A DNA stretch of 64,000 bases, from assembly GCA_029975915.1 (NCBI GenBank), contig JARKOC010000058.1:124001-188000 (forward strand), in the 5' to 3' direction. The translations under genes and the position numbers were made by a program. The notes below the pieces were generated by a model. It was not told the DNA's origin. It worked only from the letters and a program-made list of their open reading frames with translations, and made no database searches. This DNA is from Bryobacteraceae bacterium (GTDB taxonomy: Bacteria > Acidobacteriota > Terriglobia > Bryobacterales > Bryobacteraceae). This document shows, one piece after another, positions 23,115-38,926 of this stretch; the first letter of the stretch is position 1; each line of letters begins with the position of its first letter.

Positions 23115-23803
23115 GGCAGCACCTCCTCCAGTTTGTTGATGTCCTCGATAATTGCGATGGCCTTCTCTTCGCGCATGGCAGCGACGAGCTCGTCGAAACA
23201 CGGGTTCGACCGCGCGGCGATGCCGATGAAGGGCACGCCGGCGGCACGGGAACTGCGTGCGTCGTCCACGGTGTCGCCGACGTAATAGAGCGAAGAGGCG
23301 CCAGTCTTCTCACGGATCATGTTCAAGCCGTCGGGAGCGGGCTTGCCGTTGACGACATCGTCCGAGGTCAACAATGGATCGAAGCGTATGAAGGGCGCGT
23401 ACTTGTTCAGCGTCACCGCGGCCTCGGCCCGGTTGCGCCCGGTGAAGATCGCCAATTGATAACGCGCCGCAAGCCTGTTCAGCAGGCCGTCCGACGGAAC
23501 CCACTGTTCGCGCGAAATCAGACCGTCATTGTTCTCGCCGAAGAAGATCTTGCAGAAGTACTCGACGACGGTCTGATAGGGCAATTCGACGCCTAGGTCT
23601 CGGCAGAGTTGCTGCGACAGCAGCCAGTCGTTATTGAAGCCGCCGCGATTTTTGTAGCCATAAATCGTTTCGCGTTCCACCGTGGCGCCGGTAAAGTGGC
23701 GCACCGTCAGGACAATGCCTTCGATATAGCTCTCGCTCACTTCGGCCAGAACGCCGTCCATGTCGAAGATCAATACGGGCCGTAATGCGCCGCTGCGGCT
23801 CAT
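23111..23803 (-). CDS. HAD-superfamily phosphatase in the his operon (candidate histidinol-phosphatase)
   Basis: A 230-residue HAD hydrolase. Motif I is [12 protein letters not shown] (two Asp), motif II lies in [12 protein letters not shown] (Thr), and motifs III/IV are in [12 protein letters not shown] and [18 protein letters not shown] cap domain fills residues 20-110, and the sequence resembles subfamily IA hypothetical phosphatases (TIGR01548 type). It sits between hisC and hisB with four-base overlaps on both sides, and no other histidinol-phosphate phosphatase is in the operon, so it is the natural candidate for HisN activity. The ATG at 23803 gives the ATGA overlap; a GTG two codons earlier is possible. 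Confidence 0.85.
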
Positions 23804-24858
23804 TTCCACACCTCGTCCAGCGCGGCGAAGAAGCGGCTGGCTTGCTCGGGCGTTCCCGCCGTGACACGGACCGTGCCGGGGATCTCATAGCTGCGGTCGC
23901 GGATGAGAACGCCGCGATCGCGCAGTCCGTCCCGGATCGATCTGGCTTTGTCTCCAGCATGGAAGAGCACAAAATTCGCCTGGCTTGAATAGAACGGAAT
24001 GCCGCGCTGGCGGAATCCCTCGTAGATCGCGTTACGAGCCTCGACCGCGTTGCGAACATACTCACTCACATATGTTTCGTCTTCCACTGCAGCCCGGACG
24101 GCGAGGGCGGCCAGCATGTTGACGCTGTAGGGCGACTGCGCCTTGCGCACATAGGCGACATTCTGTTTTTGCGAAAACAGGCAGCCGACGCGCATTGCCG
24201 CCATGCCGAAGGCCTTGGAGAAAGTCCGGCTGACAAACAAATTCGGGCAGGCGTCGATGAGCGGTAGTGCGGTTACGCCGAAGAATTCGAAGTAGGCTTC
24301 ATCGATGAGGACCGCCGCGCGGGGCGCGGCCTTGAGGATGGTCTCAACCGCATCGAGGCGGATGGCCGTGCCGGTTGGGTTGTTGGGGTTCGAGATGAGA
24401 ATCACTCGCGTTGCGGGCGTCACGGCGGCGATCAGTTCCTCCAGCGGGAACGAAAGATCCTCGCTCCGATAGGGAACCTCGATTAGGCTGCCTCCGGCGA
24501 CCTCGGCGTAGAAGCGATACATGGCGTAGGACGGGTGCAGGATCAGCACTTCATCGTTGTCGTCGACGTAGGTGTTGATGAGGACCTGAATCGCTTCGTC
24601 GGTGCCGTTGGTGATGGCGAAGCGCTCTTCCGGCTGGTCGAAGTACCGTGCCAGTGCGGCTCGCGTGGCTTCGTATTCGGGGTAGATTGACAACTGCTCC
24701 TGGGTCAGCTTCTCCGAGAGAAATTTGATGACGGCGGGCGAGCAGCCGACCGTATTCTCGTTGAAATCGAGGCGGAGCTTGCCGGCACGGCCGGCGGTGG
24801 GCGGCGAGTAAGGCGCCATGCGCTCGATGGCGGAGCGGGGTTTCAATGCATCAGCCAC
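23800..24858 (-). CDS. hisC: Histidinol-phosphate aminotransferase HisC
   Basis: A 352-residue PLP enzyme. It starts at GTG (24858) behind GGAGGTG; the longer frame to 24927 lies inside hisD. Motifs are LDFNENTVGCSP, ITNGTDEAIQVLIN, LISNPNNPTG, VLIDEAYFEFFG and the PLP lysine in SRTFSKAFGMAAMRVG. It transaminates imidazole acetol phosphate to histidinol phosphate. It overlaps hisD by eight bases. Confidence 0.95.
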   Translation of the reverse strand: MADALKPRSAIERMAPYSPPTAGRAGKLRLDFNENTVGCSPAVIKFLSEKLTQEQLSIYPEYEATRAALARYFDQPEERFAITNGTDEAIQVLINTYVDDNDEVLILHPSYAMYRFYAEVAGGSLIEVPYRSEDLSFPLEELIAAVTPATRVILISNPNNPTGTAIRLDAVETILKAAPRAAVLIDEAYFEFFGVTALPLIDACPNLFVSRTFSKAFGMAAMRVGCLFSQKQNVAYVRKAQSPYSVNMLAALAVRAAVEDETYVSEYVRNAVEARNAIYEGFRQRGIPFYSSQANFVLFHAGDKARSIRDGLRDRGVLIRDRSYEIPGTVRVTAGTPEQASRFFAALDEVWK

Positions 24859-26095
24859 GGGTGCGCACCTCCACCGAGCGCGCGTGCGCTTCCAATCCTT
24901 CGGCGCGGGCCAGCGTCGTGATCGCACCTTCCAGCCGCTTCAGCGCAGGCCTGTTCAGCTGCTGGACCGAGATCGTCTTCACGAAGTCGGCGGCCGACAG
25001 GCCGCCGCGCAACCGGGCCACGCCTGAAGTCGGCAGGACATGATTCGGGCCTGAAGCATAGTCGCCCGCAGCCTCTGTACTCATAGGGCCGAGGAAGATG
25101 CTGCCCGCGTGGCGGATCTTTGCGAGCAAACTCGCATCGTGCAGGCTCAAATGCTCTGGCGCGAAACGATTGGAGAGTTCGACTGCCTCGTCAAGCGATG
25201 AGACGAGAATGATGGCGCTGTTGCGGTCTATGGCCTTGCGGGCCACTGGCGAAGTGGGCAGCGTGGCGAGTTGCGCTTCGAGTTCGTCGAAGACAGCTGC
25301 CGCCAGGGCCTTCGATGTTGTCAGCAGGATGGCCGATGCGTCGGTGTCGTGTTCGGCCTGTGCCAGCATGTCGGCGGCCAGCCAGCGGGGATTGCCATCG
25401 GCGGCAATAATCAGGATTTCGGTCGGACCGGCGACGAAATCAATGCCCACTTCGCCGGCGAGCAACTTCTTGGCCGCGGCGACATAGATGTTGCCAGGCC
25501 CCACAATGCGGTCAGCGCGTGGGACGGTCTTGGTTCCGTATGCGAATGCCGCGATGGCGTGTGCGCCGCCCATCTCGAAGACGTGAGTCGCGCCAAGCAT
25601 ATGGGCCGTCCCGAAGATGCCGTCCACGGCTTTCGGGGCGCAGACCAGAATGTTCGAGACGCCGGCGACGGCGGCCGGCACGACGGTCATGATGACAGTC
25701 GAGGGCAGGGGATAGCGGCCGGCGGGGATGTAAGCGGCGACGGTGTCGAGCGGCCGAACGATCTGCGACAGCTTCAATCCCGGCGCGGGTTCGGTCTTTT
25801 TCGTCTGAGGCAACTGGAGCCGGGCGTAGGCGCGGACGTGTCTGGCCGATTCCTTCACCGCGCGCTTGAACTCAGCGCTCAACCTGGAGGCGGCAGCGGC
25901 CAATTCCTCCTCAGGCACGGCCACGCTCTTGCGCGCAAGATTGTCGAACTTCCGCGCGTAGCCAAGCAAAGCCTTGTCGCCCTTCTTCCGCACGTCATCG
26001 AGAATCGGGCGCACCACGGCTTCCGCCTCGCTCATGCGCGCGGCGCGGCGGCTCAGCAGCCTTCCTGCATCCTTGCTTTCAATGATTCGAAGCAT
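24851..26095 (-). CDS. hisD: Histidinol dehydrogenase HisD
   Basis: A 414-residue zinc, NAD-dependent enzyme that oxidises L-histidinol to L-histidine. Motifs are AAYIPAGRYPLPSTVIMT, ADRIVGPGNIYVAAAKKLL, GIDFVAGPTEILIIA, AQAEHDTDASAILLT and APEHLSLH (catalytic Glu-His pair). Length is normal for the family. It is nine bases downstream of hisG. Confidence 0.96.
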   Translation of the reverse strand: MLRIIESKDAGRLLSRRAARMSEAEAVVRPILDDVRKKGDKALLGYARKFDNLARKSVAVPEEELAAAASRLSAEFKRAVKESARHVRAYARLQLPQTKKTEPAPGLKLSQIVRPLDTVAAYIPAGRYPLPSTVIMTVVPAAVAGVSNILVCAPKAVDGIFGTAHMLGATHVFEMGGAHAIAAFAYGTKTVPRADRIVGPGNIYVAAAKKLLAGEVGIDFVAGPTEILIIAADGNPRWLAADMLAQAEHDTDASAILLTTSKALAAAVFDELEAQLATLPTSPVARKAIDRNSAIILVSSLDEAVELSNRFAPEHLSLHDASLLAKIRHAGSIFLGPMSTEAAGDYASGPNHVLPTSGVARLRGGLSAADFVKTISVQQLNRPALKRLEGAITTLARAEGLEAHARSVEVRTRG

Positions 26096-26104
26096 CGCCG
26101 GTCC

Positions 26105-26974
26105 TCACATCACGATCTTGTTCAACGGGTACTCAACGATGCCTTGCGCACCGGCCTGTTTCAGGCGGGGAATGATGGTGCGCACGGTGGATTCATCGAG
26201 AATAGTATTTACAGCCAGCCAATCGCCGTCGCTCAGCGGTGAAACTGTCGGGTTCTTCAATGCCGGAAGGACGCCGAGCACAGCGGCGAGCTCCGCTTTT
26301 TGAACGTTCAGCATCAGTCCGACTTTGCCCAGAGCGGCGATGGCGCCGTCGAGCAGAATCTTCATGTCTTCGAGCTTTTGCCGCTTCCACGGATCGGCCC
26401 AGGCTTGTTTGTTGGCGACAAGCTGGGTGTTGGATTCCATCACGGTCTCGACGATGCGCAACTTGTTGGCGCGCAGCGACGAGCCGGTTTCGGTCACTTC
26501 AACGATGGCGTCGGCCAGTTCGGGCGGCTTCACTTCAGTGGCGCCCCAACTGAACTCGACCTTTGCAGTGACGCCATATTTGGCGAGGTAGCGCGTGGTC
26601 GCGCCGACAAGCTCAGTCGCAATGATCTTGCCTTCCAAGTCCTTGGCCGATTGAATCGGCGACGCCTCGGGCACGGCCAGCACCCAGCGGACCTTCCCGA
26701 AACTCTGTTTCGCATACACCAAATCGGCCACAGTGACCACGTCGGAGTCGTTTTCGACCACCCAGTCGTAGCCGGTCAGCCCGGCATCGAGGACACCGTC
26801 CTCGACATAGCGCGCCATCTCCTGGGCGCGGATCAGCATGCACTCGATTTCGGGGTCGTCGATGGAAGGGAAGTAGCTGCGGCTCGATGTGGAGATGTTG
26901 AAGCCGGCTTTGCGGAACAGATCGACAGTCGCATTTTCAAGCGACCCCTTGGGAATGCCCAGTTTGAGTTTCAT
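26105..26974 (-). CDS. hisG: ATP phosphoribosyltransferase, long form HisG
   Basis: A 289-residue long-form HisG. The catalytic core (residues 1-210) shows [27 protein letters not shown] and the PRPP-binding region [12 protein letters not shown] and [21 protein letters not shown]. Residues 215-289 form the C-terminal ACT-like domain that senses histidine in long HisG enzymes. Therefore HisZ is not required. It catalyses the committed first step and would be feedback inhibited, adding to the attenuator control. Confidence 0.95.
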
Positions 26975-26977
26975 CGT

Positions 26978-27346
26978 CTAGTACACCTTCTCTGGATCGT
27001 ATGTCTGCGCCTCGGTCACCTTCCACTCGCCTGCGTCGAGTGTGCGGAAGAAGCAGGATTCATAGCCCTCGTGACAGACGCCGGGGCCGAGTGACTCGAC
27101 CTGAAGCAGGACACAGTCCCTGTCGCAGTCGGTCTGAATTGACTTCACCACAAGCTTATGGCCCGACGATTCGCCCTTCAGCCACAGTTTGTTGCGTGAG
27201 CGGCTGAAGAACGTCGCGAAGCCGGTTTCAACGGTCAGTCTGAAGGACTCTTCGTTCATGAATCCGACCATCAAGACGCGGCCCGATCCTGCGTCCTGAA
27301 TGACGGCCGGGATGAGGCCATCGAGTTTGCTGAAGTCCAATGTCAT
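26978..27346 (-). CDS. hisI: Phosphoribosyl-AMP cyclohydrolase HisI (without HisE domain)
   Basis: A 122-residue enzyme with LWLKGESSGH and the zinc-site motif QTDCDRDCVLLQV plus a later Cys (PGVCHEGYESCFFR). It opens the purine ring of PR-AMP. The fused or separate HisE pyrophosphohydrolase is absent here and must be elsewhere. It is the first enzyme gene of the operon, starting 12 bases after the attenuator T-run. It ends three bases before hisG. Confidence 0.95.
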   Translation of the reverse strand: MTLDFSKLDGLIPAVIQDAGSGRVLMVGFMNEESFRLTVETGFATFFSRSRNKLWLKGESSGHKLVVKSIQTDCDRDCVLLQVESLGPGVCHEGYESCFFRTLDAGEWKVTEAQTYDPEKVY

Positions 27347-28567: not shown

Positions 28568-28583
28568 TGGCCCGACGATTGCA
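28568..28583 (+). promoter_or_regulatory. Sigma-54 (-24/-12) promoter of the Qrc-like operon
   Basis: TGGCCCG-N4-TTGCA matches the consensus TGGCACG-N4-TTGCW at all but one base, with the invariant GG and GC exactly 10 bases apart. Transcription would start near 28595, about 55 bases before the first gene. A sigma-54 activator is encoded at the far end of the cluster. Confidence 0.75.
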
Positions 28584-28649: not shown

Positions 28650-28895
28650 ATGTTTGGACTTGATTGGAATGACCCGCAGACGTTGTGGTTGAACCTGACC
28701 AACGTGGGGCTTGGGATCGTGACTCTGGTCTGTGTCGTCGCAGTTGCCTACAACGTTGTCAATGAACTCTGGATTCGCCGTCACGCGACTCAGACCAATG
28801 ACGCCCACGCGATGCATGTGCCGGAATTGGGCTGGACCATGGCCGACGGCGGCGAGCCGTTGGAAAAATCCACTCCTGAGAAGAAGGCCAACTGA
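28650..28895 (+). CDS. Small membrane protein, first gene of the Qrc-like operon
   Basis: An 81-residue protein behind GAAGGAGG. One membrane helix covers residues 15-38 (LTNVGLGIVTLVCVVAVAYNVV), followed by a hydrophilic tail ending in a charged segment (EKSTPEKKAN). No cofactor motif is visible apart from two His. Its place as leading gene suggests an assembly or anchoring subunit for the complex encoded downstream. I do not recognise a named family. Confidence 0.8.
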   Translation: MFGLDWNDPQTLWLNLTNVGLGIVTLVCVVAVAYNVVNELWIRRHATQTNDAHAMHVPELGWTMADGGEPLEKSTPEKKAN

Positions 28896-28921
28896 GCCGG
28901 TTTGGCGGCGGGGATCTGAAG

Positions 28922-29845
28922 ATGAACTGTCCGTTCCTCAAAGAGGCTCACGTGCGCACCTGCGCCGTGGCGCCCGTGCGGAAGATGCTCGTAGAGGCGC
29001 CAGACCTGAATCTGGCCGGCGTCTGCGGGTCGGATGCGCACACTGGTTGCCGGGTTTTCCAGAGCCGCGGCGAGGATGGCGGCCAGGGTGCCTGCCCTTA
29101 CCTGGATGAGCAACTGGTGCAGTATTGCTCGGTGGCGCCGGTGAAGAAGTACATCCCGTACAGCGAATCGGTCATGAGCCGGTGCGGCGGCAACAACTAC
29201 CAGTACTGCAGCCTCTATCTGGCTCTGTCGCAGCCCGGCTATGCGCACCAGGCGGCGGGCGACAGCCGGGACCCGCTGGTCGAAGGCATTCGGGTTCCCC
29301 GGAAGTTGTACTACGCGCCGAACCATATGTGGCTCAATCTTGGCGACAACGGCAGTTGCCATGTGGGATTGGATGGATTTCTTTCACGAATGCTGAGCAA
29401 TCTGGAACGCATCAGCTTCGTGGCGCCAAAGGGTGTCAGGCGTCCCAGTGTGACGTTAACCGTGGAGGGCATGACCTGGCCGCTCATCTTTCCCAACGAC
29501 ATCCTGATCAGCAACGCCAACCTCTATTTGCGGAGCGATCCGGCCCGCCTTGCGGCAGATCCCTACGGAGCGGGCTGGCTGTACGAAGGATGGGAAGCGC
29601 CAGGCCAGCATGCATGCGACGGTCTGATGACTGGCGACCAGGCGGCCGAGTGGATGGCGCAAGAGATGGAACGCCTGGGCTGCTATGTCCACAACTGCGC
29701 GTCCAGGAGCCAGGGTGAATTAGGCGTCGTTCTGAATGACGGCGGCGCGCCAGACGCCGGCTTACTGAAATACCTGCCGCCTGATGAACTCGCCCGGCTG
29801 TTCAACGAATTCTTCAGCCCTCAGGCCTCGTGGAAAATTGCTTAG
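28922..29845 (+). CDS. GcvH-like protein with two tandem four-Cys modules
   Basis: A 307-residue protein without signal peptide. Residues 1-100 contain a duplicated module: C3-PFL..C14-AVAPV, C35, C43 and then C58-PYL..C69-SVAPV, C88, C96, both with the spacing C-x10-C-x(18-20)-C-x7-C. Each could bind an iron-sulfur cluster or zinc. Residues 130-230 resemble the glycine cleavage H-protein/biotinyl-lipoyl fold (YYAPNHMWLNLGDNGSCHVGLDGF, then DPYGAGWLYEG), but the usual ESVKA lipoylation loop is replaced by IFPNDILISNANLYL, so no modified lysine is expected. A role as a redox or assembly partner of the neighbouring complex is inferred from position only. Confidence 0.8.
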   Translation: MNCPFLKEAHVRTCAVAPVRKMLVEAPDLNLAGVCGSDAHTGCRVFQSRGEDGGQGACPYLDEQLVQYCSVAPVKKYIPYSESVMSRCGGNNYQYCSLYLALSQPGYAHQAAGDSRDPLVEGIRVPRKLYYAPNHMWLNLGDNGSCHVGLDGFLSRMLSNLERISFVAPKGVRRPSVTLTVEGMTWPLIFPNDILISNANLYLRSDPARLAADPYGAGWLYEGWEAPGQHACDGLMTGDQAAEWMAQEMERLGCYVHNCASRSQGELGVVLNDGGAPDAGLLKYLPPDELARLFNEFFSPQASWKIA

Positions 29846-29862
29846 ACGGAGAAATAGATAAG

Positions 29863-30441
29863 ATGCGGAGCGCGATCTTCTTCCTGACTGGAGCAGCGGT
29901 GATGCTAGCGGCAGGCTGGGCAGGCTTGCCGAAAGTCCTATACAAACAGAAGCAGCAGCCGCTCGAATTCAGCCACAAAGCGCACAAAGTGAAGGCCGAT
30001 ATGGACTGCACGGCGTGCCACGATTTCCGGCAGGACGGCTCATACGCAGGCTTGCCTAAGCTGGAAGGTTGCGCCGCTTGCCACCCTGAGCCGGTCGGAG
30101 AGACGGCGGCGGAGAAGAAGTTCGTCGAATCCTATGTGAAGCAGGAAAAGGAAGTGGACTGGCTGGTCTATGCTAGGCAGCCGATCAATGCGAGGTTTTC
30201 GCACGCCATTCATGTCAAGAAGGCAGATCTGAAGTGCGAGCGTTGCCACGGAGACCATGGCAACACCGAGAAGCTCAGGCCGTATGAATACAACATTGTG
30301 AGCGGCTACAGCCGGGACATCTGGGGGCCGAGCATCTCAAGGCTGCGCAGGGCGAGCCACCAGGGCATGAAGATGGACGACTGCATGGGATGCCACAAGG
30401 AGAAAGGCGCCGAGGCCGGGTGTCTCGGATGCCATCGCTAA
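29863..30441 (+). CDS. Pentaheme c-type cytochrome (QrcA-like / cytochrome c3 family)
   Basis: A 192-residue protein with an uncleaved or signal helix at residues 4-20 (AIFFLTGAAVMLAAGWAG). Five heme motifs are present: C49-TA-CH, C70-AA-CH, C125-ER-CH, C174-MG-CH and C187-LG-CH. Extra His (FSHKAH, FSHAIH) are suited as distal ligands for bis-His hemes, as in class III cytochromes. Desulfovibrio QrcA, the cytochrome subunit of the menaquinone reductase complex, carries six hemes; this one has five. It would exchange electrons with periplasmic donors. The next gene is the MopB subunit, as in qrcABCD. Confidence 0.88.
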   Translation: MRSAIFFLTGAAVMLAAGWAGLPKVLYKQKQQPLEFSHKAHKVKADMDCTACHDFRQDGSYAGLPKLEGCAACHPEPVGETAAEKKFVESYVKQEKEVDWLVYARQPINARFSHAIHVKKADLKCERCHGDHGNTEKLRPYEYNIVSGYSRDIWGPSISRLRRASHQGMKMDDCMGCHKEKGAEAGCLGCHR

Positions 30442-30455
30442 CAGGACGAACTGAG

Positions 30456-32477
30456 ATGATCAAGCGCAGAGACATTCTCATGCTGGGCGGCGGATCCATC
30501 GCCGCGCTTCCACTGACGCCGATCCCGTACAAGCTGCTGGACGACGTATCGATCTGGACGCAGAACTGGCCGTGGATTCCCGTGCCCAAGGCTGGCGAAC
30601 TCACGGTTCGGAATAGCGTCTGCACGCTTTGCCGGGGTGGTTGCCCGATTCGGGTCCGATGCGTCGACGGACGGCCGATCGGCGTGATGCCAAAACGGAA
30701 CGAGGAGGGATCAGTGAGCCCCGTCTGCGCCCTGGCATTCGGTTCGCACCAGTTGCCTTGGCACCCGGCCCGGTTGAAGAAATGCTTGCTCAACGGAAAA
30801 CCGGCGACGCCAGACGAGGTGTCGGCGGCTGTTGCCGAAGCGTGCAGGAACGCGGGAGGGAACTCGATTGCGATCCTCGACGAACGCCCTGGCAGGGCGA
30901 TGTCGGCGCTGTACAGGAGATTCACCTTGGCAGTGAAGGGCGGGGTCTATGTGACGCCTCCTATGCAAGAGCGGGCGACTCTGGATGCCGTGGCGGCGCT
31001 ATGCGGGGCAAAATCAAGGCTTGGCTTTGACTGGTCCAAGACGGCGACGGTCCTGAGCATCGGCGCGCCGCTGCTGGACGGATTCCCTGGAACCGCTGAA
31101 CTCGCCGGCCGCAGGTCGAGAGGCGAGGTCAGGCTGTTTCATGCCGGGTCCAGTTACTCGCGCCAGGCGCAGCTCGCCGAGCGGTTTTTCCCGATCCTGC
31201 CCGGCGGCGAAGGGGCGTTTGCGCTTGGCTTGGCGAGCGTCCTGGCCGAAAAAGCCCCCGCGATGGCGGGCCTCGCCGAGTTTCAATCGCTCACCACGCG
31301 CTTCCCCCTGGAACGGGCCGCGGCACTGTCCGGCTTGAAGCCTGAGACGATCCGCCAGTTGGCGTCGGATCTCGCGTTGGGCGCACCAGCCGTGGTGGCT
31401 GGCGGAGGCGATTATGCTTCCGGGCCTTACGGGGTTGAAACCGAAACGCTCATCGCGGCATTGAACATGTTATTGGGCAGTGTGGGCATAAACGGCGGGA
31501 TCCGGCCGTATACCGGGCTGGATTCGCAGTCCGGCTCAACGCCGCTGGCACAACTGCCCGACCACAGCGTTGGCGTCCTGTTCGCGGACCGCGCTCCGGC
31601 TGGGTTCGCACTTCCCTGGTCTCTGATCGAACGCAAACTCGCAAAAGGCGCGATGGTTGTCGCGCTGACGTGTTGGCATCGGGAATTGGCATCGAGAGCG
31701 CAGGCCGTCGTGGCGGCGCCGGCGCCGATGGAGGACTGGACAGAGAGCTGTTCCACCGCGCAACCTGCCTACAACGTCGCGCCTGCCGTCCTGAAGCGGC
31801 CCGAAGGCACAGTCCGCGCCGACGAACTCTTGCTCTCGGTTGCTGGTCAGCTTGGCGCGAACCCCGGGGAGGGATTTGACTTGGAAACGGCATTGAAGGG
31901 CAGGGCCGGAGAGATTCTTGCGGCCAGGCGCGGCTCCGTTGCCGGTCAGAAGATAACTGAATTCGCTACAGCCGAGGATGTCTGGAAGGCTCTGTCGGAA
32001 GGCGCGGAATGGACCGATTCTGAGTCATCGGCAGAGCGGCTCAAGGCGTGTCTCCCCGGCGTGTCTGCGGGCGAAACCGACAGGCTGCTCGCAGCGGTCA
32101 ACGGCCGGGCGTCATCGAAGCGGCCTGATGAATTCCCGCTGGCCCTGATCGCCACGGGATGGATTGGTGAGGCGGGCGGCCTGCGGCTGCCGCTGTCCCG
32201 AATCCTCGACAAGGAGTCGCTGCTTCGCCGTCCATCCGGACGGGCGGCGGTTCATCCGTCAACAGCGGCAAGCCTTGGACTCAAGGGCGGAACGCAAGTG
32301 CAAATCGAAACGCCGAAAGGGCAGAGGAGAATGATGCTGGATTTGGACGACGCTGTACTGCCTGGAGCGATTGAAGTCACGCCGGAGGCCGCGGACGGCG
32401 ATTTCGCGCTCGATTTGATGGAGCCTGGCGCTGATGGAACATGGGGCCTTGCTTGGGCGCGGATGAGGAGGGCGTAG
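30456..32477 (+). CDS. MopB-fold (molybdopterin oxidoreductase-like) subunit, QrcB-like
   Basis: A 673-residue protein with a Tat-type start (IKRRDILMLGGGSIAALPL). One [4Fe-4S] motif is visible: C56-x2-C59-x3-C63-x27-C91 (VCTLCRGGCPIRV ... SPVCALAFG). The body resembles the Psr/Qrc/alternative complex III branch (SHQLPWHPARLKK, YASGPYGVETETLIAALNMLLGSVGINGGI). In Desulfovibrio QrcB this fold binds no molybdopterin and serves as an electron-transfer scaffold. The same is likely here since its length is about 670 rather than 750-1000 residues, but cofactor loss is an inference. The ATG at 30456 overlaps no neighbour and begins the signal. Confidence 0.87.
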   Translation: MIKRRDILMLGGGSIAALPLTPIPYKLLDDVSIWTQNWPWIPVPKAGELTVRNSVCTLCRGGCPIRVRCVDGRPIGVMPKRNEEGSVSPVCALAFGSHQLPWHPARLKKCLLNGKPATPDEVSAAVAEACRNAGGNSIAILDERPGRAMSALYRRFTLAVKGGVYVTPPMQERATLDAVAALCGAKSRLGFDWSKTATVLSIGAPLLDGFPGTAELAGRRSRGEVRLFHAGSSYSRQAQLAERFFPILPGGEGAFALGLASVLAEKAPAMAGLAEFQSLTTRFPLERAAALSGLKPETIRQLASDLALGAPAVVAGGGDYASGPYGVETETLIAALNMLLGSVGINGGIRPYTGLDSQSGSTPLAQLPDHSVGVLFADRAPAGFALPWSLIERKLAKGAMVVALTCWHRELASRAQAVVAAPAPMEDWTESCSTAQPAYNVAPAVLKRPEGTVRADELLLSVAGQLGANPGEGFDLETALKGRAGEILAARRGSVAGQKITEFATAEDVWKALSEGAEWTDSESSAERLKACLPGVSAGETDRLLAAVNGRASSKRPDEFPLALIATGWIGEAGGLRLPLSRILDKESLLRRPSGRAAVHPSTAASLGLKGGTQVQIETPKGQRRMMLDLDDAVLPGAIEVTPEAADGDFALDLMEPGADGTWGLAWARMRRA

Positions 32478-32479
32478 CG

Positions 32480-33256
32480 ATGGCGGCCGGAACCATGGAA
32501 ACAAAGAAAACCAACCGCAAGTTCCGCTACGGAATGGTGATCGACCTGGATGCGTGCACCGGGTGTGGTGCCTGCATGATCGCGTGCGCGGCGGAGAACA
32601 ACGTCGCGCCGTCGCGCGAGACGGTGAACGAACGGACATCGATCACACCGATGCGCGTGTTCAAGGTGAACGATCCGGCGCCGATGCCGGCGCGCAAGAC
32701 CGTCTTCGCGCCGATGATGTGCCAGCAGTGCGATGACCCGCCCTGCGAGCATGTCTGCCCGCAGCAAGCCGTTGAACTGGATGCCCGGACTGGCATCGTC
32801 ACACAAATGCCGCAACGATGCTTCGGCTGCCGGTACTGCATGGCTGCTTGCCCCTATCATGCGCGGTATTTCAACTGGTTCGACCCGCAGTGGCCAGAAG
32901 GGATGGAACAGACGCTCAATCCGGCGGTTGCGCCGAAGATGCGTGGCGTGGTGGAAAAGTGCAATCTGTGCCATGGGCGCTTCCACCAGGCGCAGGATCT
33001 GGCGGCGATTGAGGGATCAGAGAAGATCTCCTACACGCCCGCGTGCGTCGAGGCCTGCCCGGTTCAGGCGATCCGGATCGGAGATCTGAACGATCAAGAG
33101 GATCCGATTCAGCAAGAAATCAAAAAGTCCGAGACCTTCCAATTCCTGGCCAAGCTGGGCACCAGACCGAAGGTGTATTACAAGTCGCGCCAGGAGTGGG
33201 TGCGGATGCTCGCAGGCCGCGCGGCCGGTGATGGATCCGGAAGGAGGAACGGCTGA
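32480..33256 (+). CDS. Ferredoxin-like subunit with four [4Fe-4S] motifs, QrcC-like
   Basis: A 258-residue protein with sixteen motif cysteines arranged as in DmsB/PsrB/QrcC: CTGCGACMIAC, CQQCDDPPCEHVC, CFGCRYCMAAC and CNLC with CVEAC at the end. It would carry electrons between the cytochrome/MopB head and the membrane subunit. It starts two bases after the MopB stop codon and overlaps nothing. The upstream extension to 32441 is inside the MopB gene. Confidence 0.92.
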   Translation: MAAGTMETKKTNRKFRYGMVIDLDACTGCGACMIACAAENNVAPSRETVNERTSITPMRVFKVNDPAPMPARKTVFAPMMCQQCDDPPCEHVCPQQAVELDARTGIVTQMPQRCFGCRYCMAACPYHARYFNWFDPQWPEGMEQTLNPAVAPKMRGVVEKCNLCHGRFHQAQDLAAIEGSEKISYTPACVEACPVQAIRIGDLNDQEDPIQQEIKKSETFQFLAKLGTRPKVYYKSRQEWVRMLAGRAAGDGSGRRNG

Positions 33257-33257
33257 A

Positions 33258-34568
33258 ATGGCGACCAACACCCTGGAACCGTCAATGGGCATCCAAGCTG
33301 CCTCAAGTGAACGGCGGTGGATCGCTCGCGGCCTTTCAAGATGTTCGATGGCCATGTTTTCGGCCTGGCTAGCGCCGTGGCTGATCATGCTGGGCGTCGG
33401 CGTCTATGCCACCTACCTTTGCCTGAGCCAAGGGCTGGGCGTGACCAACCTGGACAACCGCTTCGGATTCGGGCTTTGGATCTTCCTCGACCTAGCGGTG
33501 ATCGCCCTCGGAGCAGGAGCGTTCTTTTCCGGTTTCCTGCTTTACATCATGAAGTGGAAGGAGATCAAAGCGGTCATCAGCAGCGCGGTCGTGCTCGGAT
33601 TCCTCTGCTACAGCGGCGCGATGGCTGTTCTCGCCGTGGATGTCGGCCAACCGCTGCGTGCGTGGTTCACCTTCTGGCATCCGAACGTGCATTCGATGCT
33701 GACCGAAGTCACCTTCTGCATCACTTGCTACCTGATCGTCCTTTCGATCGAGTACCTGCCGATCATCCTCAAGAACCGGCGCTTGAAGCAGGTTCCGTCG
33801 TTCCTGGTTTTTGAATGGGAGCTCCACAAGCTCATTCCCGTGCTCGCCGGCATCGGTTGTCTGCTCTCGTTTTTCCACCAGGGATCGCTTGGCGGTCTGT
33901 TTGGGGTGATGCGCGGCCGCCCATTCGCCTTCCGCGAAGGATTTGCCATCTGGCCGAGCACGTTCTTTCTGTTCGTCCTTTCGGCCGCAGCCGTCGGGCC
34001 GAGCTTCATCATCCTCACCACAAAACTCGTCGAGTGGATCACCAGCAAGCGCCTGGTCAAGCCGGGCGTCTATCTGACTCTGGCGAAGACCACCGGGGTG
34101 CTACTAACCGCCTACGTCGCTCTGAAAAGCATCGACACGCTCATCTGGCTGAACTCGACGTCGGTCAACGCCGGATTCGCACCGTGGGAATACTACGAGT
34201 GGAAGCCGTTTGGAGGCTGGATTCTTTTCGCCGAGATCGTCATATTCGGCATGGCGCCGGCGCTGATGCTCCTCTCCAAGCGGCTGCGGACGAAGCCGGC
34301 GATTCTGATCGCGGGCGCAGTGCTGGCCTGCACCGGGGTTGTGCTGAACCGCTTTGTCATGACGATTCAAACGCTAGCGCTGCCGACGCTGTCATTCGAT
34401 CAGTTCCTCACATACACGCCGAACTGGGTCGAGTTCGCGGTCTTTGGTATGGTTATCGCCTACGCGGTGATCGTGTATTCGCTTTCATACAGGTACTTAA
34501 ATCTCTTCCCGCAGGAAAAGGAAATCGCTGCGGAAGTCTTGGAGGTGGCTGATGTTCCCGTTCGTTGA
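33258..34568 (+). CDS. NrfD/PsrC-type membrane quinone-binding subunit, QrcD-like
   Basis: A 436-residue integral membrane protein behind AAGGAGG with about ten hydrophobic helices (for example LAPWLIMLGVGVYATYLCL, LWIFLDLAVIALGAGAFFSGFLLYIM). The segments FHQGSLGGLFGVM and EWELHKLIPVLAGIG carry residues typical of the NrfD family quinone site. It would reduce or oxidise menaquinone at the outer face of the membrane. It completes the A-B-C-D order of a Qrc-type complex. The next gene starts inside its 3' end, with a 17-base overlap. Confidence 0.92.
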   Translation: MATNTLEPSMGIQAASSERRWIARGLSRCSMAMFSAWLAPWLIMLGVGVYATYLCLSQGLGVTNLDNRFGFGLWIFLDLAVIALGAGAFFSGFLLYIMKWKEIKAVISSAVVLGFLCYSGAMAVLAVDVGQPLRAWFTFWHPNVHSMLTEVTFCITCYLIVLSIEYLPIILKNRRLKQVPSFLVFEWELHKLIPVLAGIGCLLSFFHQGSLGGLFGVMRGRPFAFREGFAIWPSTFFLFVLSAAAVGPSFIILTTKLVEWITSKRLVKPGVYLTLAKTTGVLLTAYVALKSIDTLIWLNSTSVNAGFAPWEYYEWKPFGGWILFAEIVIFGMAPALMLLSKRLRTKPAILIAGAVLACTGVVLNRFVMTIQTLALPTLSFDQFLTYTPNWVEFAVFGMVIAYAVIVYSLSYRYLNLFPQEKEIAAEVLEVADVPVR

Positions 34569-35373
34569 TGGTTTTCACTGGACATTTGGACACGTTCTGT
34601 TCCTGAGCGTCTTCGGGGCCGTGCTCGCTGTGATCGGCGTCACGTTGCTGATGTCACTGCGGCGTTCAGCGCGCGTGGCCGCGTCCGGCCAGGCGGAAAC
34701 GATCCGCTGGAAGAGCGATTTCCACGATCTCGCCGAGTCCGAGCGCCAGTGCCGGCACGAGCTTGCTGGCCGGGTGGATCACCGGCAATGCCACAACGAA
34801 TTCGACTGCCGAAAGTGCGAGACTCATCCGAAATTGGTCAATGCCATCGCAGCGGACGAATTCGATGTAAGCGCCTATGGGCTGTCCTATCCGGCCGACA
34901 GGCTCTATCATCGGGGCCAGACGTGGGTCCGCCAGGAAGCGGACGGGACTCTGACTGTCGGCCTGACGGACCTGGGGCGGCGCTTGCTCGGGCGTCCGGA
35001 CAGCTTAGAATTGCCTTCACCGGGCGACAGGTTGTTCGCCAATGGCAAGGGCTGGACGTTGACGCGCAACGGCGTGACAGCCCGCCTGCTGTCGCCGGTC
35101 GACGGCGAAGTCCTGGAAGTGGGCGGCCCGGATCTGGAGTTCTATCTGCGAGTGAAGCCGTCCACGGCTCACCCGAATATGGCTCATCTGCTGCGCGGAG
35201 CCGAGGTCAGCGGATGGGTGCGATCGCAGCTTGAGCGGCTTCAGATTCTCACCACTCCCGAAGGCGCCAAAGCGTCGCTGGCCGACGGCGGCGTACTGAT
35301 GGACGACCTCCCGAAAGCTCAGCCGGATGCCGATTGGGACAAAGTCTATGGCGAGATATTCCTCGAGCCTTAA
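34552..35373 (+). CDS. Membrane-anchored GcvH-like protein with Cys cluster
   Basis: A 273-residue protein with one N-terminal membrane helix (residues 12-36). A four-Cys motif follows: C67-RH, C80-HNEFD-C86-RK-C89, close to the CRHxLxGxxxxRxCxxxxxCxxC pattern of GcvH-like proteins found beside NrfD-type complexes in delta-proteobacteria. Residues 115-240 resemble the H-protein fold (LYHRGQTWVRQEADGTLTVGLTDLGRRLLG, LLSPVDGEVLEVGG), but the lipoyl lysine loop is replaced (GKGWTLTRNGVTARL). The function is unknown; position argues for a structural or redox accessory of the Qrc-like complex. Its stop overlaps by four bases the end of the convergent regulator gene. Confidence 0.82.
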   Translation: MFPFVDGFHWTFGHVLFLSVFGAVLAVIGVTLLMSLRRSARVAASGQAETIRWKSDFHDLAESERQCRHELAGRVDHRQCHNEFDCRKCETHPKLVNAIAADEFDVSAYGLSYPADRLYHRGQTWVRQEADGTLTVGLTDLGRRLLGRPDSLELPSPGDRLFANGKGWTLTRNGVTARLLSPVDGEVLEVGGPDLEFYLRVKPSTAHPNMAHLLRGAEVSGWVRSQLERLQILTTPEGAKASLADGGVLMDDLPKAQPDADWDKVYGEIFLEP

Positions 35374-36728
35374 CCCCGCTCAATGTTGTACTTTTTGATC
35401 TTCTCGTAAAGCGTCGAGCGGTCGATACCGAGGGCGGCGGCGGCCTCCTTGATGTTGCCCTGGGTCCGGCCTAGGGCGGCCTCGATGGCCAGCTTCTCGA
35501 GTTCCTGAAGGGGCACGGGCGGCAGGGCCACGTTCGCCCGGCTGCGCATGAGCGAATCGAGGAAACTGAAGTCCTCGGCGCACAGCACGCGGCTGCGCGT
35601 CGTGACGATCGCGCGTTCCACGGCGTTTTCGAGTTCCCTGATATTACCCGGCCAGTCGTAGTCGAGCAGGATCTTCAAAGCGTCTTCGCCGATCCCATCT
35701 ACGTTCTTGCCGATTTCAGATGAAAGGCGCGCGACGAAATGCCGCGCGAGGTGCGGAATGTCGTCGCGCCTCTGCGAGAGCGGCGGGACGTTGATCTCGA
35801 TCACGTTCAAACGGTAATACAGGTCGTCACGGAATCGGCCCTCGCGCACTTCCTCCGCAAGGTCCTTATTCGTAGCAGCGATCACGCGCACATCCACTTG
35901 GATCTCCACCGTGCCGCCGACCCGGTAGAATCTCCGCTCCTGAAGAACGCGCAACAGGTCAGCCTGCAGTTTCGGCGAGATGTCCCCGATCTCGTCCAGG
36001 AATATCGTGCCTCCTTCGGCCAATTCGAACTTGCCCTTCGTCTGAGCGGCAGCGCCGGTGAAGGCTCCCTTCTCGTAGCCGAACAGCTCGCTCTCTAGCA
36101 GGGTTTCGGCCAGTGATGCACAGGAGACGGCGATGAACGGGGCATTGGCCCGGTCTCCCGAATAGTGGATCGCCCTTGCGATGAGTTCCTTGCCAGTCCC
36201 GCTGGCGCCCTTGATCAGCACGGTCGAGCGCAGGCTGGCGACGTCCTTCACAAGTTCGAGGATGGATTGCATCTTCGCGTTCTTTGTGATGATGTCGCGG
36301 TATTCGTATTGCCCGGTGAGGCGCTTGCGCAGCATCTGGTTTTCAAGCTGGAGGTTCTTGACCTTGATAATGCGGTCCACCAGCAAAGAGATCTCCTCTG
36401 GGTTGCATGGCTTGACGATGTACTCCTGCGCCCCTTCCTTCATCGCCGTAATCGCCGTATCGACGGTGGCATAGGCCGTGATGATGATGACCGACGCATC
36501 GGGGTGCAAACGACGGATCTCCATCATTGTTTCGATGCCGTCCATGCCCCCCGGCATCTTCAGATCGACGAAGTAGATGGCGTAGTCTGTTTCGCGGCTC
36601 CGGGCGACCGCCGCACGGCCCGAGGGAGCCGTGTCCACGCTATAGCCATCCTCACGGAGCCATGCCGCAAGGGATTCGGCCATCACTTCTTCGTCGTCGA
36701 CAATCAGAATCTGCCATCTCGATTTCAT
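35370..36728 (-). CDS. Sigma-54-dependent response regulator (NtrC family)
   Basis: A 452-residue activator. The receiver domain (1-120) has acidic residues in LIVDDEE and the phosphorylated Asp at D55 (YFVDLKMPGG). The AAA+ domain has Walker A GASGTGKE, the sigma-54 contact loop GAFTGA and Walker B GGTIFLDEIGD. A Fis-type helix-turn-helix ends the protein (NIKEAAAALGIDRSTLYEKIKKY). It would open a sigma-54 promoter when phosphorylated by the kinase encoded two genes upstream. The near-consensus -24/-12 site at 28568 in front of the neighbouring redox operon is the obvious target. The ATG at 36728 sits eight bases after GAGGT. Confidence 0.95.
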   Translation of the reverse strand: MKSRWQILIVDDEEVMAESLAAWLREDGYSVDTAPSGRAAVARSRETDYAIYFVDLKMPGGMDGIETMMEIRRLHPDASVIIITAYATVDTAITAMKEGAQEYIVKPCNPEEISLLVDRIIKVKNLQLENQMLRKRLTGQYEYRDIITKNAKMQSILELVKDVASLRSTVLIKGASGTGKELIARAIHYSGDRANAPFIAVSCASLAETLLESELFGYEKGAFTGAAAQTKGKFELAEGGTIFLDEIGDISPKLQADLLRVLQERRFYRVGGTVEIQVDVRVIAATNKDLAEEVREGRFRDDLYYRLNVIEINVPPLSQRRDDIPHLARHFVARLSSEIGKNVDGIGEDALKILLDYDWPGNIRELENAVERAIVTTRSRVLCAEDFSFLDSLMRSRANVALPPVPLQELEKLAIEAALGRTQGNIKEAAAALGIDRSTLYEKIKKYNIERG

Positions 36729-36738
36729 GATTCTTACC

Positions 36739-37293
36739 TCACCCATCTTCTTCCATGAGCGACTTCATCCGTGCGTCCACGTTCAAGGAGCACGGACGGC
36801 AGAAGCTGTCCCTTTTGATGTCAACTTGCTCAAGAGTCGTCGAAAGGCACATGGCGCATGACCTGTCCGGACAATGGACGAGCCCAAACGTATGTCCCAT
36901 TTCATGCAGGATCTCCTTGCGGACCCGCATCATCAGTAATTCCTGGTTTGGCGGCAGGCCGTAGAACTCCTGCCGCAACCGGGCGGTCGAAACGAGCGCA
37001 GCCGCACCGCCCAGTTGGGCCTGTCCGAACAGGAAGCTCAACACCGGGACGAAAAGGTCGTCCGACGTCAGTCCAAGGATACGTGACGCGCCTGGCGGGC
37101 AGATTCGAACCAGTTCCTTCATGAACTCGACGGCGCTCCACTGGCCTCTTGACGCGTCAAAGGCTCCCGCTGGCGGGGGGGGTGCCGGCAGGCGCCCGAC
37201 CTCGAATCCGAATGATCGTTCTATTAACATCTGCGCTTCACTAAGGATCGCCTCTTCGACGAAGCCAAACGGGACGATGCAGGCCAGCCTCAC
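36739..37293 (-). CDS. amzA: Archaemetzincin-type metalloprotease
   Basis: A 184-residue protein carrying the archaemetzincin signature: H130-EMGH-TFG-LVH-C141, then C146-AM, and CRPC at 165-168, which bind catalytic and structural zinc. The Met after the second Cys is the metzincin Met-turn. The first half (residues 1-110) matches the family fold (RILGLTSDDLFVPVLSFLFGQAQLGG). No signal peptide is seen, so it is probably cytoplasmic. It starts at GTG (37293), nine bases after CGGAG; a TTG two codons earlier is possible. It lies between a sensor kinase and its response regulator in one operon, which suggests a regulatory role, but this is inference. Confidence 0.93.
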   Translation of the reverse strand: MRLACIVPFGFVEEAILSEAQMLIERSFGFEVGRLPAPPPPAGAFDASRGQWSAVEFMKELVRICPPGASRILGLTSDDLFVPVLSFLFGQAQLGGAAALVSTARLRQEFYGLPPNQELLMMRVRKEILHEMGHTFGLVHCPDRSCAMCLSTTLEQVDIKRDSFCRPCSLNVDARMKSLMEEDG

Positions 37294-37312
37294 GCCCAAG
37301 ACTCCGCCCCGC

Positions 37313-38926
37313 TCAGGCGGGCTCCTCGGTCCGGATCGATGCAGTCAACGGCAATGTGACGCTGAATCTGGAACCCATCCCTTTGCTGCTCTTCACCTCG
37401 ACAGTCCCGTCGTGCGCTTCCACGATGCCATAAAGAACGGCCAGACCCAGGCCCACCCCTTTCCCGTCAGGCTTTGATGTGAAGAATGGGGCGAAAATTT
37501 TATCGAGATTCTCCTCGGGAATCCCCTCGCCATTGTCTTCAACGACGAGTACGGCGCTATCCTTGGCCTGGTTCAAGTGCGTGGCGATGGTCACCTTTCC
37601 GCCTCCGGTCGGCTGTATGGCCTCGGCGGCATTGAGCACCAGATTCAGGATTACTTGCTGGATCTGAGAGGCGTCGCAAGGCACCAGCGGAAGGTCCGGC
37701 TGAAGATTGTATTCGATTGTCGCCTCGCACAATCTGAGCTTGTGCTCGACGAGCGACACGGTGGATTGGACGAGCCGGTTCAAGTCGGCGCCGGCGCGTT
37801 GCGGCTTGGATCTCCTCGAAAACGCCAATAGATCGGAGACGATCCGCCCGACACGGGCAGTCTCGCGGCTGATCTGGTTCAGGTATTTTTTCAACTCGGG
37901 TACGCGCTCCGGAGGCAACGTATCGTCCTTGAGGATGCGCTGGCACAGCATCGAAAGGTTCAACACGCCCGAAATCGGGTTGTTGATCTCGTGCGCGACG
38001 CTCGCGGACAACTGGCCGAGTGAAGCGAGACGGTCGGAATGCAGCAGTTTCTGGTGCGCCGCCTTGAGCTGCTGCGTCCGCTCCTCTACCTTGTCCTCCA
38101 GGCTCTGCGTGAACAGGTTCAGCTTGCCCATGGCGTCGGCCAGCCGTTCGCGCATCGTGTTGAAACTGGCAACCAGCTCGTCCATTTCCTCACTGCGATG
38201 CTCGATTTCGATCGGCTTATCGAGTTCCATTGCGCTCACCGCTTTGGTCCCGGCGATCAGCTCGTCGATTGGCTTGGTGACAAAGAAACGCGTGAAGAAG
38301 ACGATGCAAACAGCCACCAGGAGAATCTGGACAATCGTTGAAAGCGCCGTCTGGAATTTGATGGACGCCTCTTCCTGGGCGATCGGGTCGGTCCTTAGCG
38401 CGACATCGAGGACGCCAAGCACCTTCACCGTAGAGGGGTGCGCGTGGCAGGCCGCTTGGCTGCAAGAGGGCTCGTTATAGATCGGCGTAATCATGTTGAG
38501 GGTTTGGAACCCCTCGGGTGAGCGGCTTCTCCGCGCGCGGGCCTCTACCGTTAGTTTTTCGCGCACGATCCCTTTGGCATGGCAGGAAGCGCATGGTTCA
38601 TCCTTCAGGGACCTGGCGCGTCTTGAGTCTTCCGGCCGGGTCGAAAAAGTGAGATCGCCATTGCCGTTATATATCCGGATCCGGTCTACGCCCTGCTTCT
38701 CCGCGATCTTGCTCATGATGTCGTATGCCACTTCACGGTGATCGTCGAGCATTGCCTGCCAGGTGGCGCTTGTGATGCTCTTGGAAAGCTGGTCCGCGCC
38801 CAAAATCATCGTGTCGAGCAAGTGTTTCTGTTGGGTATCAAGATAGATGAAGCCGAAGATCGACTTGATCAAAACAACAATGAATGTGAGCGAGACGATT
38901 AGCTTGACCGAGAGTTTTCGCCTCAT
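37313..38926 (-). CDS. Membrane sensor histidine kinase with two c-type heme motifs
   Basis: A 537-residue kinase. Helices at residues 8-28 and 196-214 flank a periplasmic sensor domain. In it, C112-AS-CH and C155-SQAA-CH are two heme c attachment motifs, the second with a four-residue spacer. A HAMP domain (215-268), a short coiled coil, the HisKA domain with phospho-acceptor H312 (SVAHEINNP) and an HATPase domain ([30 protein letters not shown]) follow. It probably senses redox state or a gas ligand through heme and phosphorylates the sigma-54 activator in the same operon. It needs the cytochrome c maturation machinery. Confidence 0.93.

What the first reader, a model, noticed from the sequence alone, without database searches (positions are those of the whole stretch)
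28650..35373. Qrc-like redox complex operon with two GcvH-like partners
The order pentaheme cytochrome, MopB-fold protein, four-cluster ferredoxin, NrfD membrane subunit matches the menaquinone reductase complex QrcABCD of sulfate reducers. Here it is bracketed by two proteins with a glycine-cleavage-H-like fold that seem to lack the lipoyl lysine, and led by a small membrane protein. The recurring pairing of lysine-less H-like proteins with such a complex may mark an undescribed subunit or assembly factor.
Basis: partly seen in the sequence, partly recalled or inferred. Interest (0 to 1): 0.8.

Follow-up and report, generated by a model that had tools for sequence, protein, structure and literature searches.

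The report
Respiratory Qrc operon with lipoate-free H-proteins
A membrane respiratory complex known from sulfate-reducing bacteria is encoded here, and in related bacteria of several phyla, together with proteins shaped like the lipoate carrier GcvH that have lost the lipoate site, which suggests an overlooked cytoplasm-facing partner or assembly factor of the complex.

Summary
Window 28650-35373 is one tight operon: small membrane protein (SM), H1, QrcA-, B-, C- and D-like proteins, H2, behind a sigma54-type promoter match. H1 and H2 are predicted to fold as GcvH and carry Gly in place of the lipoyl lysine. The pairing is not chance: in 29 of 29 loci chosen by QrcD alone (four taxonomic samples) H2 follows QrcD; 19 show all seven genes, L163 shows H1 and then ends, 7 are cut by a contig end, L176 lacks H1 and SM, and L177 shows no H1 in the 0.56 kb available. 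The characterised Desulfovibrio Qrc has four genes and four subunits, so this is a variant. Distant relatives, nearly all lysine-less, often lie beside HmcC/HybB-like NrfD genes, sensor kinases, sigma54 regulators and an M54 metalloprotease; two are fused to a receiver domain, and three genomes have one without any NrfD match. My reading: H1, H2 and SM are cytoplasm-facing adaptor or regulatory components of the Qrc complex. Assembly factor is the main rival. There is no biochemistry here, and Desulfobacterota genomes could not be sampled.

The parts
28568..28582 (+). sigma54 -24/-12-type promoter match (one mismatch to TGGCACN5TTGC), 67 nt before SM
   Evidence: one of 3 matches with one mismatch in the window (at two mismatches the window has 59, fewer than the 74 expected by chance); relatives: 28 of 48 score 12.5 or more against 6.5% of shuffles
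28650..28895 (+). SM: small one-helix membrane protein, C-terminal TMADGG motif
   Evidence: no Pfam or NCBIfam hit
28922..29845 (+). H1: no membrane helix found; two Cys4 modules (Cys 3,14,35,43 and 58,69,88,96), lysine-less GcvH-like domain 129-246, DGG tail
29863..30441 (+). QrcA-like pentaheme cytochrome c, N-terminal hydrophobic helix
   Evidence: NF041781 209.8 bits over cut-off 180; 5 CXXCH; helix; start chosen by eye (GTG 29830 also possible)
30456..32477 (+). QrcB-like molybdopterin-fold protein, RR motif near N-terminus (by eye), CxxCx3C...C motif
   Evidence: NF041783 226.5 bits, below cut-off 440; start chosen by eye
32480..33256 (+). QrcC-like ferredoxin with 16 Cys
   Evidence: NF041782 314.8 bits, below cut-off 400; Cys positions; start chosen by eye (ATG 32441 also possible)
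33258..34568 (+). QrcD-like NrfD membrane subunit; D70, Y88, Y110, D120, S138, E142, Y150, E157 equivalents present
   Evidence: NF041784 561.1 bits, cut-off 570; 18 of 25 listed residues identical at identical spacing; start chosen by eye
34552..35373 (+). H2: N-terminal membrane helix, one Cys4 module (Cys 67,80,86,89), lysine-less GcvH-like domain, DGG tail
35370..36746 (-). sigma54-type response regulator (convergent neighbour)
   Evidence: Pfam Response_reg, Sigma54_activat, HTH_8
36739..37299 (-). M54 archaemetzincin-like metalloprotease, HEMGHTFGLVH
   Evidence: Pfam PF07998 87.0 bits; motif
37313..38926 (-). sensor histidine kinase with two heme-c-type motifs (CASCH, CSQAACH) between its two membrane helices

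Best explanation
This is a Qrc-type cytochrome c:menaquinone oxidoreductase (inferred from QrcABCD similarity) with three dedicated cytoplasm-facing partners: SM, H1 and H2. Shown by sequence: the genes form one tight cluster, H2 is constant, H1 and SM nearly so, the H domains lack the lysine that carries lipoate, and SM, H1 and H2 end in a common DGG motif. Inferred: QrcABC lie outside the membrane, SM and H2 are anchored with their soluble parts inside, H1 is cytosolic, so the three form a module on the cytoplasmic face of QrcD, from where protons for quinone reduction are taken. There the H domain works as a protein-docking, not a lipoate-carrying, domain, and the module adjusts the complex (activity, stability or expression) to cell redox state, working with the heme-sensor kinase, sigma54 regulator and M54 protease often found beside it.
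For: 29 of 29 QrcD-selected loci have H2. In 199 Acidobacteriota genomes, close H2 (over 370 bits) occurs in the same 3 that have QrcD. Mantel r with QrcD: H1 0.76, H2 0.75, SM 0.67; QrcA 0.75, QrcB 0.81. Lysine lost. More Lys/Arg after than before the helix in SM 52 of 52 and H2 50 of the 57 (of 80) with a helix found; no helix in 52 of 56 H1. DGG tail: SM 51 of 52, H1 56 of 56, H2 78 of 80, genuine GcvH 0 of 7. Receiver-H fusions beside kinase and NrfD in L139 and L140. Distant H-like proteins near NrfD in 22 of 36 regions and near a kinase in 25 of 36. M54 in 32 of 34 genomes with H-like protein, 26 of 165 without.
Against: N. vulgaris Qrc works and purifies with four subunits. H1 and SM are missing in L176, H1 in L065, and no H1 is seen in 0.56 kb before QrcA in L177. 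H2 of L178 has no Cys module, so redox sensing by it is not general. RR and M54 are both absent near 15 of 41 Qrc loci with 7 kb or more downstream. Mantel values do not single out the H proteins: M54 also gives 0.77 and the true subunit QrcC only 0.54. Nothing shows physical contact; topology is by hydropathy and charge only, and no helix was found in 23 of 80 H2. Genomes are related and of unknown completeness, so co-occurrence counts are not independent.
Confidence: 0.45

Rival explanations
1. H1, H2 and SM are assembly factors: cytosolic chaperones that hold or load the QrcB/QrcC precursor with Fe-S clusters before Tat export and hand it to QrcD, not part of the finished complex.
For: Cytosolic side, Cys4 modules that could pass metal, constant linkage; an RR motif at the QrcB N-terminus, seen by eye.
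Against: Most distant H proteins have 0-3 Cys; H-like proteins exist beside regulator genes in three genomes without an NrfD match; receiver-H fusions.
Confidence: 0.3
2. H proteins are signalling proteins only: they read the state of an NrfD complex and report to the HK-sigma54 system, without being subunits.
For: Receiver-H fusions, HK-M54-RR linkage, H with a kinase that carries an iron-only-hydrogenase-like domain and no NrfD match.
Against: No strong kinase or regulator hit at 14 of 41 Qrc loci with enough flank (loci selected by H2), while H2 is at 29 of 29 QrcD-selected loci.
Confidence: 0.15
3. H1/H2 Cys modules bind Fe-S clusters and carry electrons between the cytosol and Qrc.
For: 8 Cys columns in H1 and 4 in H2 conserved at 90% or more.
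Against: H2 of L178 lacks them; QrcD is described as having no cofactor (PMC13059093).
Confidence: 0.08
4. H1/H2 are ordinary or LbpA-like lipoate carriers, misread as lysine-less.
For: H fold and Pfam GCV_H.
Against: Lys in 1 of 58 H1 and 3 of 84 H2 rows, 7 of 7 in true GcvH; in the 6 Qrc genomes where a strong GcvH was found it lies on another contig than QrcD.
Confidence: 0.02

Closest known systems
QrcABCD menaquinone reductase of Desulfovibrio/Nitratidesulfovibrio vulgaris
   Same: Gene order A-B-C-D, best family hits; D70, Y110, D120, S138 and Y150 conserved by spacing
   Different: Plus SM, H1, H2; QrcA has 5 heme motifs in 58 of 58 (6 hemes listed in PMC8076601); QrcB-like keeps a CxxCx3C...C motif in 61 of 66 rows, while QrcB is said to have no redox cofactor
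GcvH of the glycine cleavage system
   Same: Fold (TM-score by target: best-ranked hit 0.77 for H2, up to 0.84 for H1)
   Different: No lipoyl lysine; added helix or Cys modules and DGG tail
LbpA lipoate-binding proteins of Hdr-like sulfur oxidation (PMC6067878, listing and abstract start only)
   Same: GcvH-like protein dedicated to a redox system (that LbpA resembles GcvH is recalled)
   Different: LbpA is described as lipoate-binding; H1/H2 lack the usual lysine
HmcC/HybB-type NrfD complexes
   Same: Distant H proteins sit beside NrfD genes whose best hit is HmcC in 5 of 5 tested (303-536 bits, cut-off 550, none over it)
   Different: The window complex is QrcD-type

Membership tests
Qrc complex | QrcA, B, C, D genes in order | tested here: met
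Qrc complex | NCBIfam equivalog cut-offs | tested here: inconclusive
   QrcA over; QrcD 561.1/570, QrcC 314.8/400, QrcB 226.5/440 below; relatives' QrcD over the cut-off in 2 of 3, 8 of 19, 3 of 3 and 0 of 4 matching genomes
Qrc complex | QrcD residues changed in mutants (D70, Y110, D120, S138, Y150, R358, E413) | tested here: met
   first five identical at identical spacing; R358 and also E319 fall one position off; E413 not tested; 18 of 25 listed residues match in all (residues)
Qrc complex | six-heme QrcA | tested here: not met
   five CXXCH, 58 of 58
Qrc complex | cytochrome c3:menaquinone reductase activity | not testable with these tools
   needs biochemistry
GcvH / LbpA lipoate carrier | lipoyl lysine | tested here: not met
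   Gly in both
GcvH / LbpA lipoate carrier | H-protein fold | tested here: met

The most novel reading that the evidence does not exclude
Lysine-less H proteins with DGG tails are a general adaptor family that wires QrcD- and HmcC-type NrfD respiratory complexes to heme- or hydrogen-sensing kinases, and the M54 metalloprotease acts on the DGG tails shared by SM, H1 and H2 as a maturation or quality-control step.
Probability: 0.12. Interest if true: 0.85.

Novelty: new variant of a known kind. Interest (0 to 1): 0.62.

Why it matters
It would turn a complex described in the Qrc papers I saw as a four-subunit complex of Desulfobacterota into one with conserved extra partners in other phyla, in genomes where DsrA was found in only 4 of 28 (assemblies may be incomplete). 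It would give a role in respiration to an H fold without lipoate, and it points to a possible function for bacterial M54 proteases.

Tried and rejected
Lipoate carrier: rejected by the lysine column. NrfD-only association: too narrow, see G028, G041, G054. Obligate link to sulfate reduction: DsrA in 4 of 28 Qrc genomes. Obligate link to a canonical NiFe hydrogenase: PF00374 over 500 bits in 9 of 28; the weaker hits that all 28 have probably include complex I subunits (my judgement). Plasmid carriage: no H2 match, only NrfD matches under 25% identity among the 10 of 12 rows shown. Papers: of ten searches, those that joined GcvH words with Qrc or NrfD words returned 0 papers; others (10 of 63 listed) listed none that from title and abstract start joins them; some searches asked other questions. 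The library holds open-licence papers only. The first Qrc paper (PMC2906268) was not held.

Counting notes: rows dropped before counts were ORFs under 45 residues, H hits under 40 bits or 60 bits (distant rows), fragments under 220 or 250 residues, and L077. In H2 the lysine column is variable (Gly in 34 of 84), so lysine loss is clear but glycine is not conserved. In the other rows Lys stands in 2 of 47 and 3 of 24. The promoter control used mononucleotide shuffles, and SM starts were set by rule. tallies NrfD in 20 of 36 regions; I add L139 and L140, where the H domain is in a frame labelled RR, to make 22, and likewise 25 for kinases. Kinase and regulator profiles are generic.
Full report
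What is there. Window 28650-35373 on the + strand is a seven-gene cluster with gaps of at most 26 bases or short overlaps, taking the starts that I chose by eye. NCBIfam names the four middle genes as QrcA-, QrcB-, QrcC- and QrcD-like; QrcA passes its curated cut-off, QrcD misses it by 9 bits, QrcB and QrcC by more. Of 25 QrcD residues listed in the literature, 18 are identical at identical spacing, among them D70, Y110, D120, S138 and Y150, which were mutated in Nitratidesulfovibrio vulgaris (PMC8076601, passages; PMC13059093, abstract, sections 3 and 8 and passages). QrcA has five heme motifs in 58 of 58 relatives, where six hemes are listed for the known QrcA.

The H proteins. H1 (307 aa) and H2 (273 aa) match GcvH by profile, by sequence to PDB chains and by predicted fold. 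The models rest on alignments of 30 rows and are of moderate confidence (mean pLDDT 82 and 78, pTM 0.71); the Cys modules are among the less certain parts. In an alignment with seven genuine GcvH from six Qrc-carrying genomes, those keep the lipoyl lysine 7 of 7; window H1 and H2 have glycine; across relatives Lys stands in 1 of 58 H1 and 3 of 84 H2 rows. H1 starts with two copies of a four-cysteine module (8 columns with 52-56 Cys of 56), H2 has one (4 columns, 77 of 77) behind an N-terminal helix. The metal, if any, is unknown. All three extra proteins share a DGG motif near the C-terminus: SM 51 of 52, H1 56 of 56, H2 78 of 80, distant H-like 39 of 46, genuine GcvH 0 of 7.

Is the pairing real? 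A scan of genome contigs with H2 gave 108 relatives, 80 kept. 77 of 80 show QrcD in the same locus; in the other three (L056, L059, L073) H2 begins at the contig edge. 54 of 80 have all seven genes; most others are cut by contig ends, and L065 lacks H1 between SM and QrcA. The reverse test chose loci by QrcD alone: 3 of 199 Acidobacteriota genomes, 19 of 149 in the class of G003 (genome of L046, titled Kryptoniota), 3 of 79 in the phylum of G005 (L018, titled KSB1) and 4 of 282 in the phylum of G431 (L076, titled Oligoflexales). All 29 have H2 as the next gene after QrcD. 19 also show H1 and SM, L163 shows H1 and then ends, 7 are cut by a contig end, L176 has neither H1 nor SM in over 4 kb upstream, and L177 shows no H1 in the 0.56 kb available. 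Some of these genomes are also among the H2-selected loci. Distances in H1 and H2 follow QrcD as well as those of QrcA and QrcB do (Mantel r 0.75-0.81); SM gives 0.67, QrcC 0.54, M54 0.77, kinase 0.44 and regulator 0.19, so this measure shows shared descent rather than contact.

The wider family. In the same 199 Acidobacteriota genomes, H2-profile hits at E 1e-15 or better occur in 34 (45 places; the 3 over 370 bits are the Qrc ones, the rest are under 133 bits). I read all 36 regions holding the other 42. NrfD lies nearby in 22 of 36, a kinase in 25, and none of NrfD, kinase, regulator and M54 in 7 (L139 and L140 added by hand). The five NrfD genes tested have HmcC as best hit, below its cut-off; [quoted passage not shown] L139 and L140 encode a receiver and an H domain in one chain, with a hydrophobic stretch before them, next to a kinase and NrfD. 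L089 and L132 have an H-like protein, M54, a regulator and a kinase; in L089 the kinase carries an iron-only-hydrogenase-like domain, and neither genome has an NrfD match. M54 occurs in 32 of 34 genomes with H-like protein and 26 of 165 without (Fisher p about 9e-19, not corrected for kinship); by place, 27 of 45 H hits have M54 within 10 kb but only 22 of 70 M54 hits have an H hit that near.

Regulation. A sigma54-type promoter match lies at 28568-28582, 67 nt before SM; over the whole window such sites at two mismatches are not enriched (59 found, 74 expected). In 48 relatives the best upstream site scores 12.5 or more in 28, against 6.5% of shuffles; 20 of those 28 start 60-110 nt before SM. 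The convergent neighbours are a sigma54-type regulator, an M54 protease and a kinase with heme-c motifs between its helices. A convergent regulator or M54 is found at 26 of 41 Qrc loci with at least 7 kb downstream, neither at 15.

How it most likely works. Shown: gene content, constancy, loss of lysine, predicted fold, topology signals. Inferred: QrcABC act outside the membrane, QrcD reduces menaquinone with protons from inside, and SM, H1 and H2 form an inner-face module that docks through the H domains and tunes or protects the complex. That helix, H domain and tail persist when the Cys module is gone (L178) favours docking over electron transfer. Assembly factor remains a serious rival.

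Known or new. MAG CO124 (L021) has this operon; its paper assigned qrcABCD by NrfD phylogeny and reported anoxic transcription, with no occurrence of GcvH in its text (PMC10564751, passages). NCBI already names some Bacteroidota and Terriglobia proteins QrcD. The Qrc papers seen describe four subunits, QrcD only in Deltaproteobacteria and Qrc in Desulfobacterota; GcvH does not occur in PMC8076601, PMC6303296 or PMC13059093. Searches joining GcvH with QrcD or NrfD in an open-licence library found no paper. I therefore call it a new variant of a known kind.

Noticed in passing
window 36739-37299: M54 archaemetzincin-like protease between a sigma54 regulator and a heme-motif kinase; M54 is present in 32 of 34 Acidobacteriota genomes with H-like proteins and 26 of 165 without.
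   Followed up: partly
L139:7925-9280, L140:7434-9191: Hydrophobic stretch, receiver domain and H domain in one protein, beside kinase and NrfD.
   Followed up: partly
L089:2328-7731: Kinase with an iron-only-hydrogenase-like domain, M54, regulator and an H protein with three Cys modules (by eye), in a genome without an NrfD match.
   Followed up: partly
L083:6129-6506, L084:6476-6814, L087:5122-5424, L098:10773-11372, L099:5451-5747: Small stand-alone proteins with one H1-type Cys4 module just before the Fe-S and NrfD genes.
   Followed up: no
window 30456-32477: QrcB-like protein keeps four cysteines in CxxCx3C...C (61 of 66 rows), though known QrcB is said to have no redox cofactor.
   Followed up: no
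L023, L024, L029, L056: These loci carry a second H2-like gene after H2.
   Followed up: no
window 23800-27346: Upstream minus-strand genes look like histidine biosynthesis (by eye, no search).
   Followed up: no
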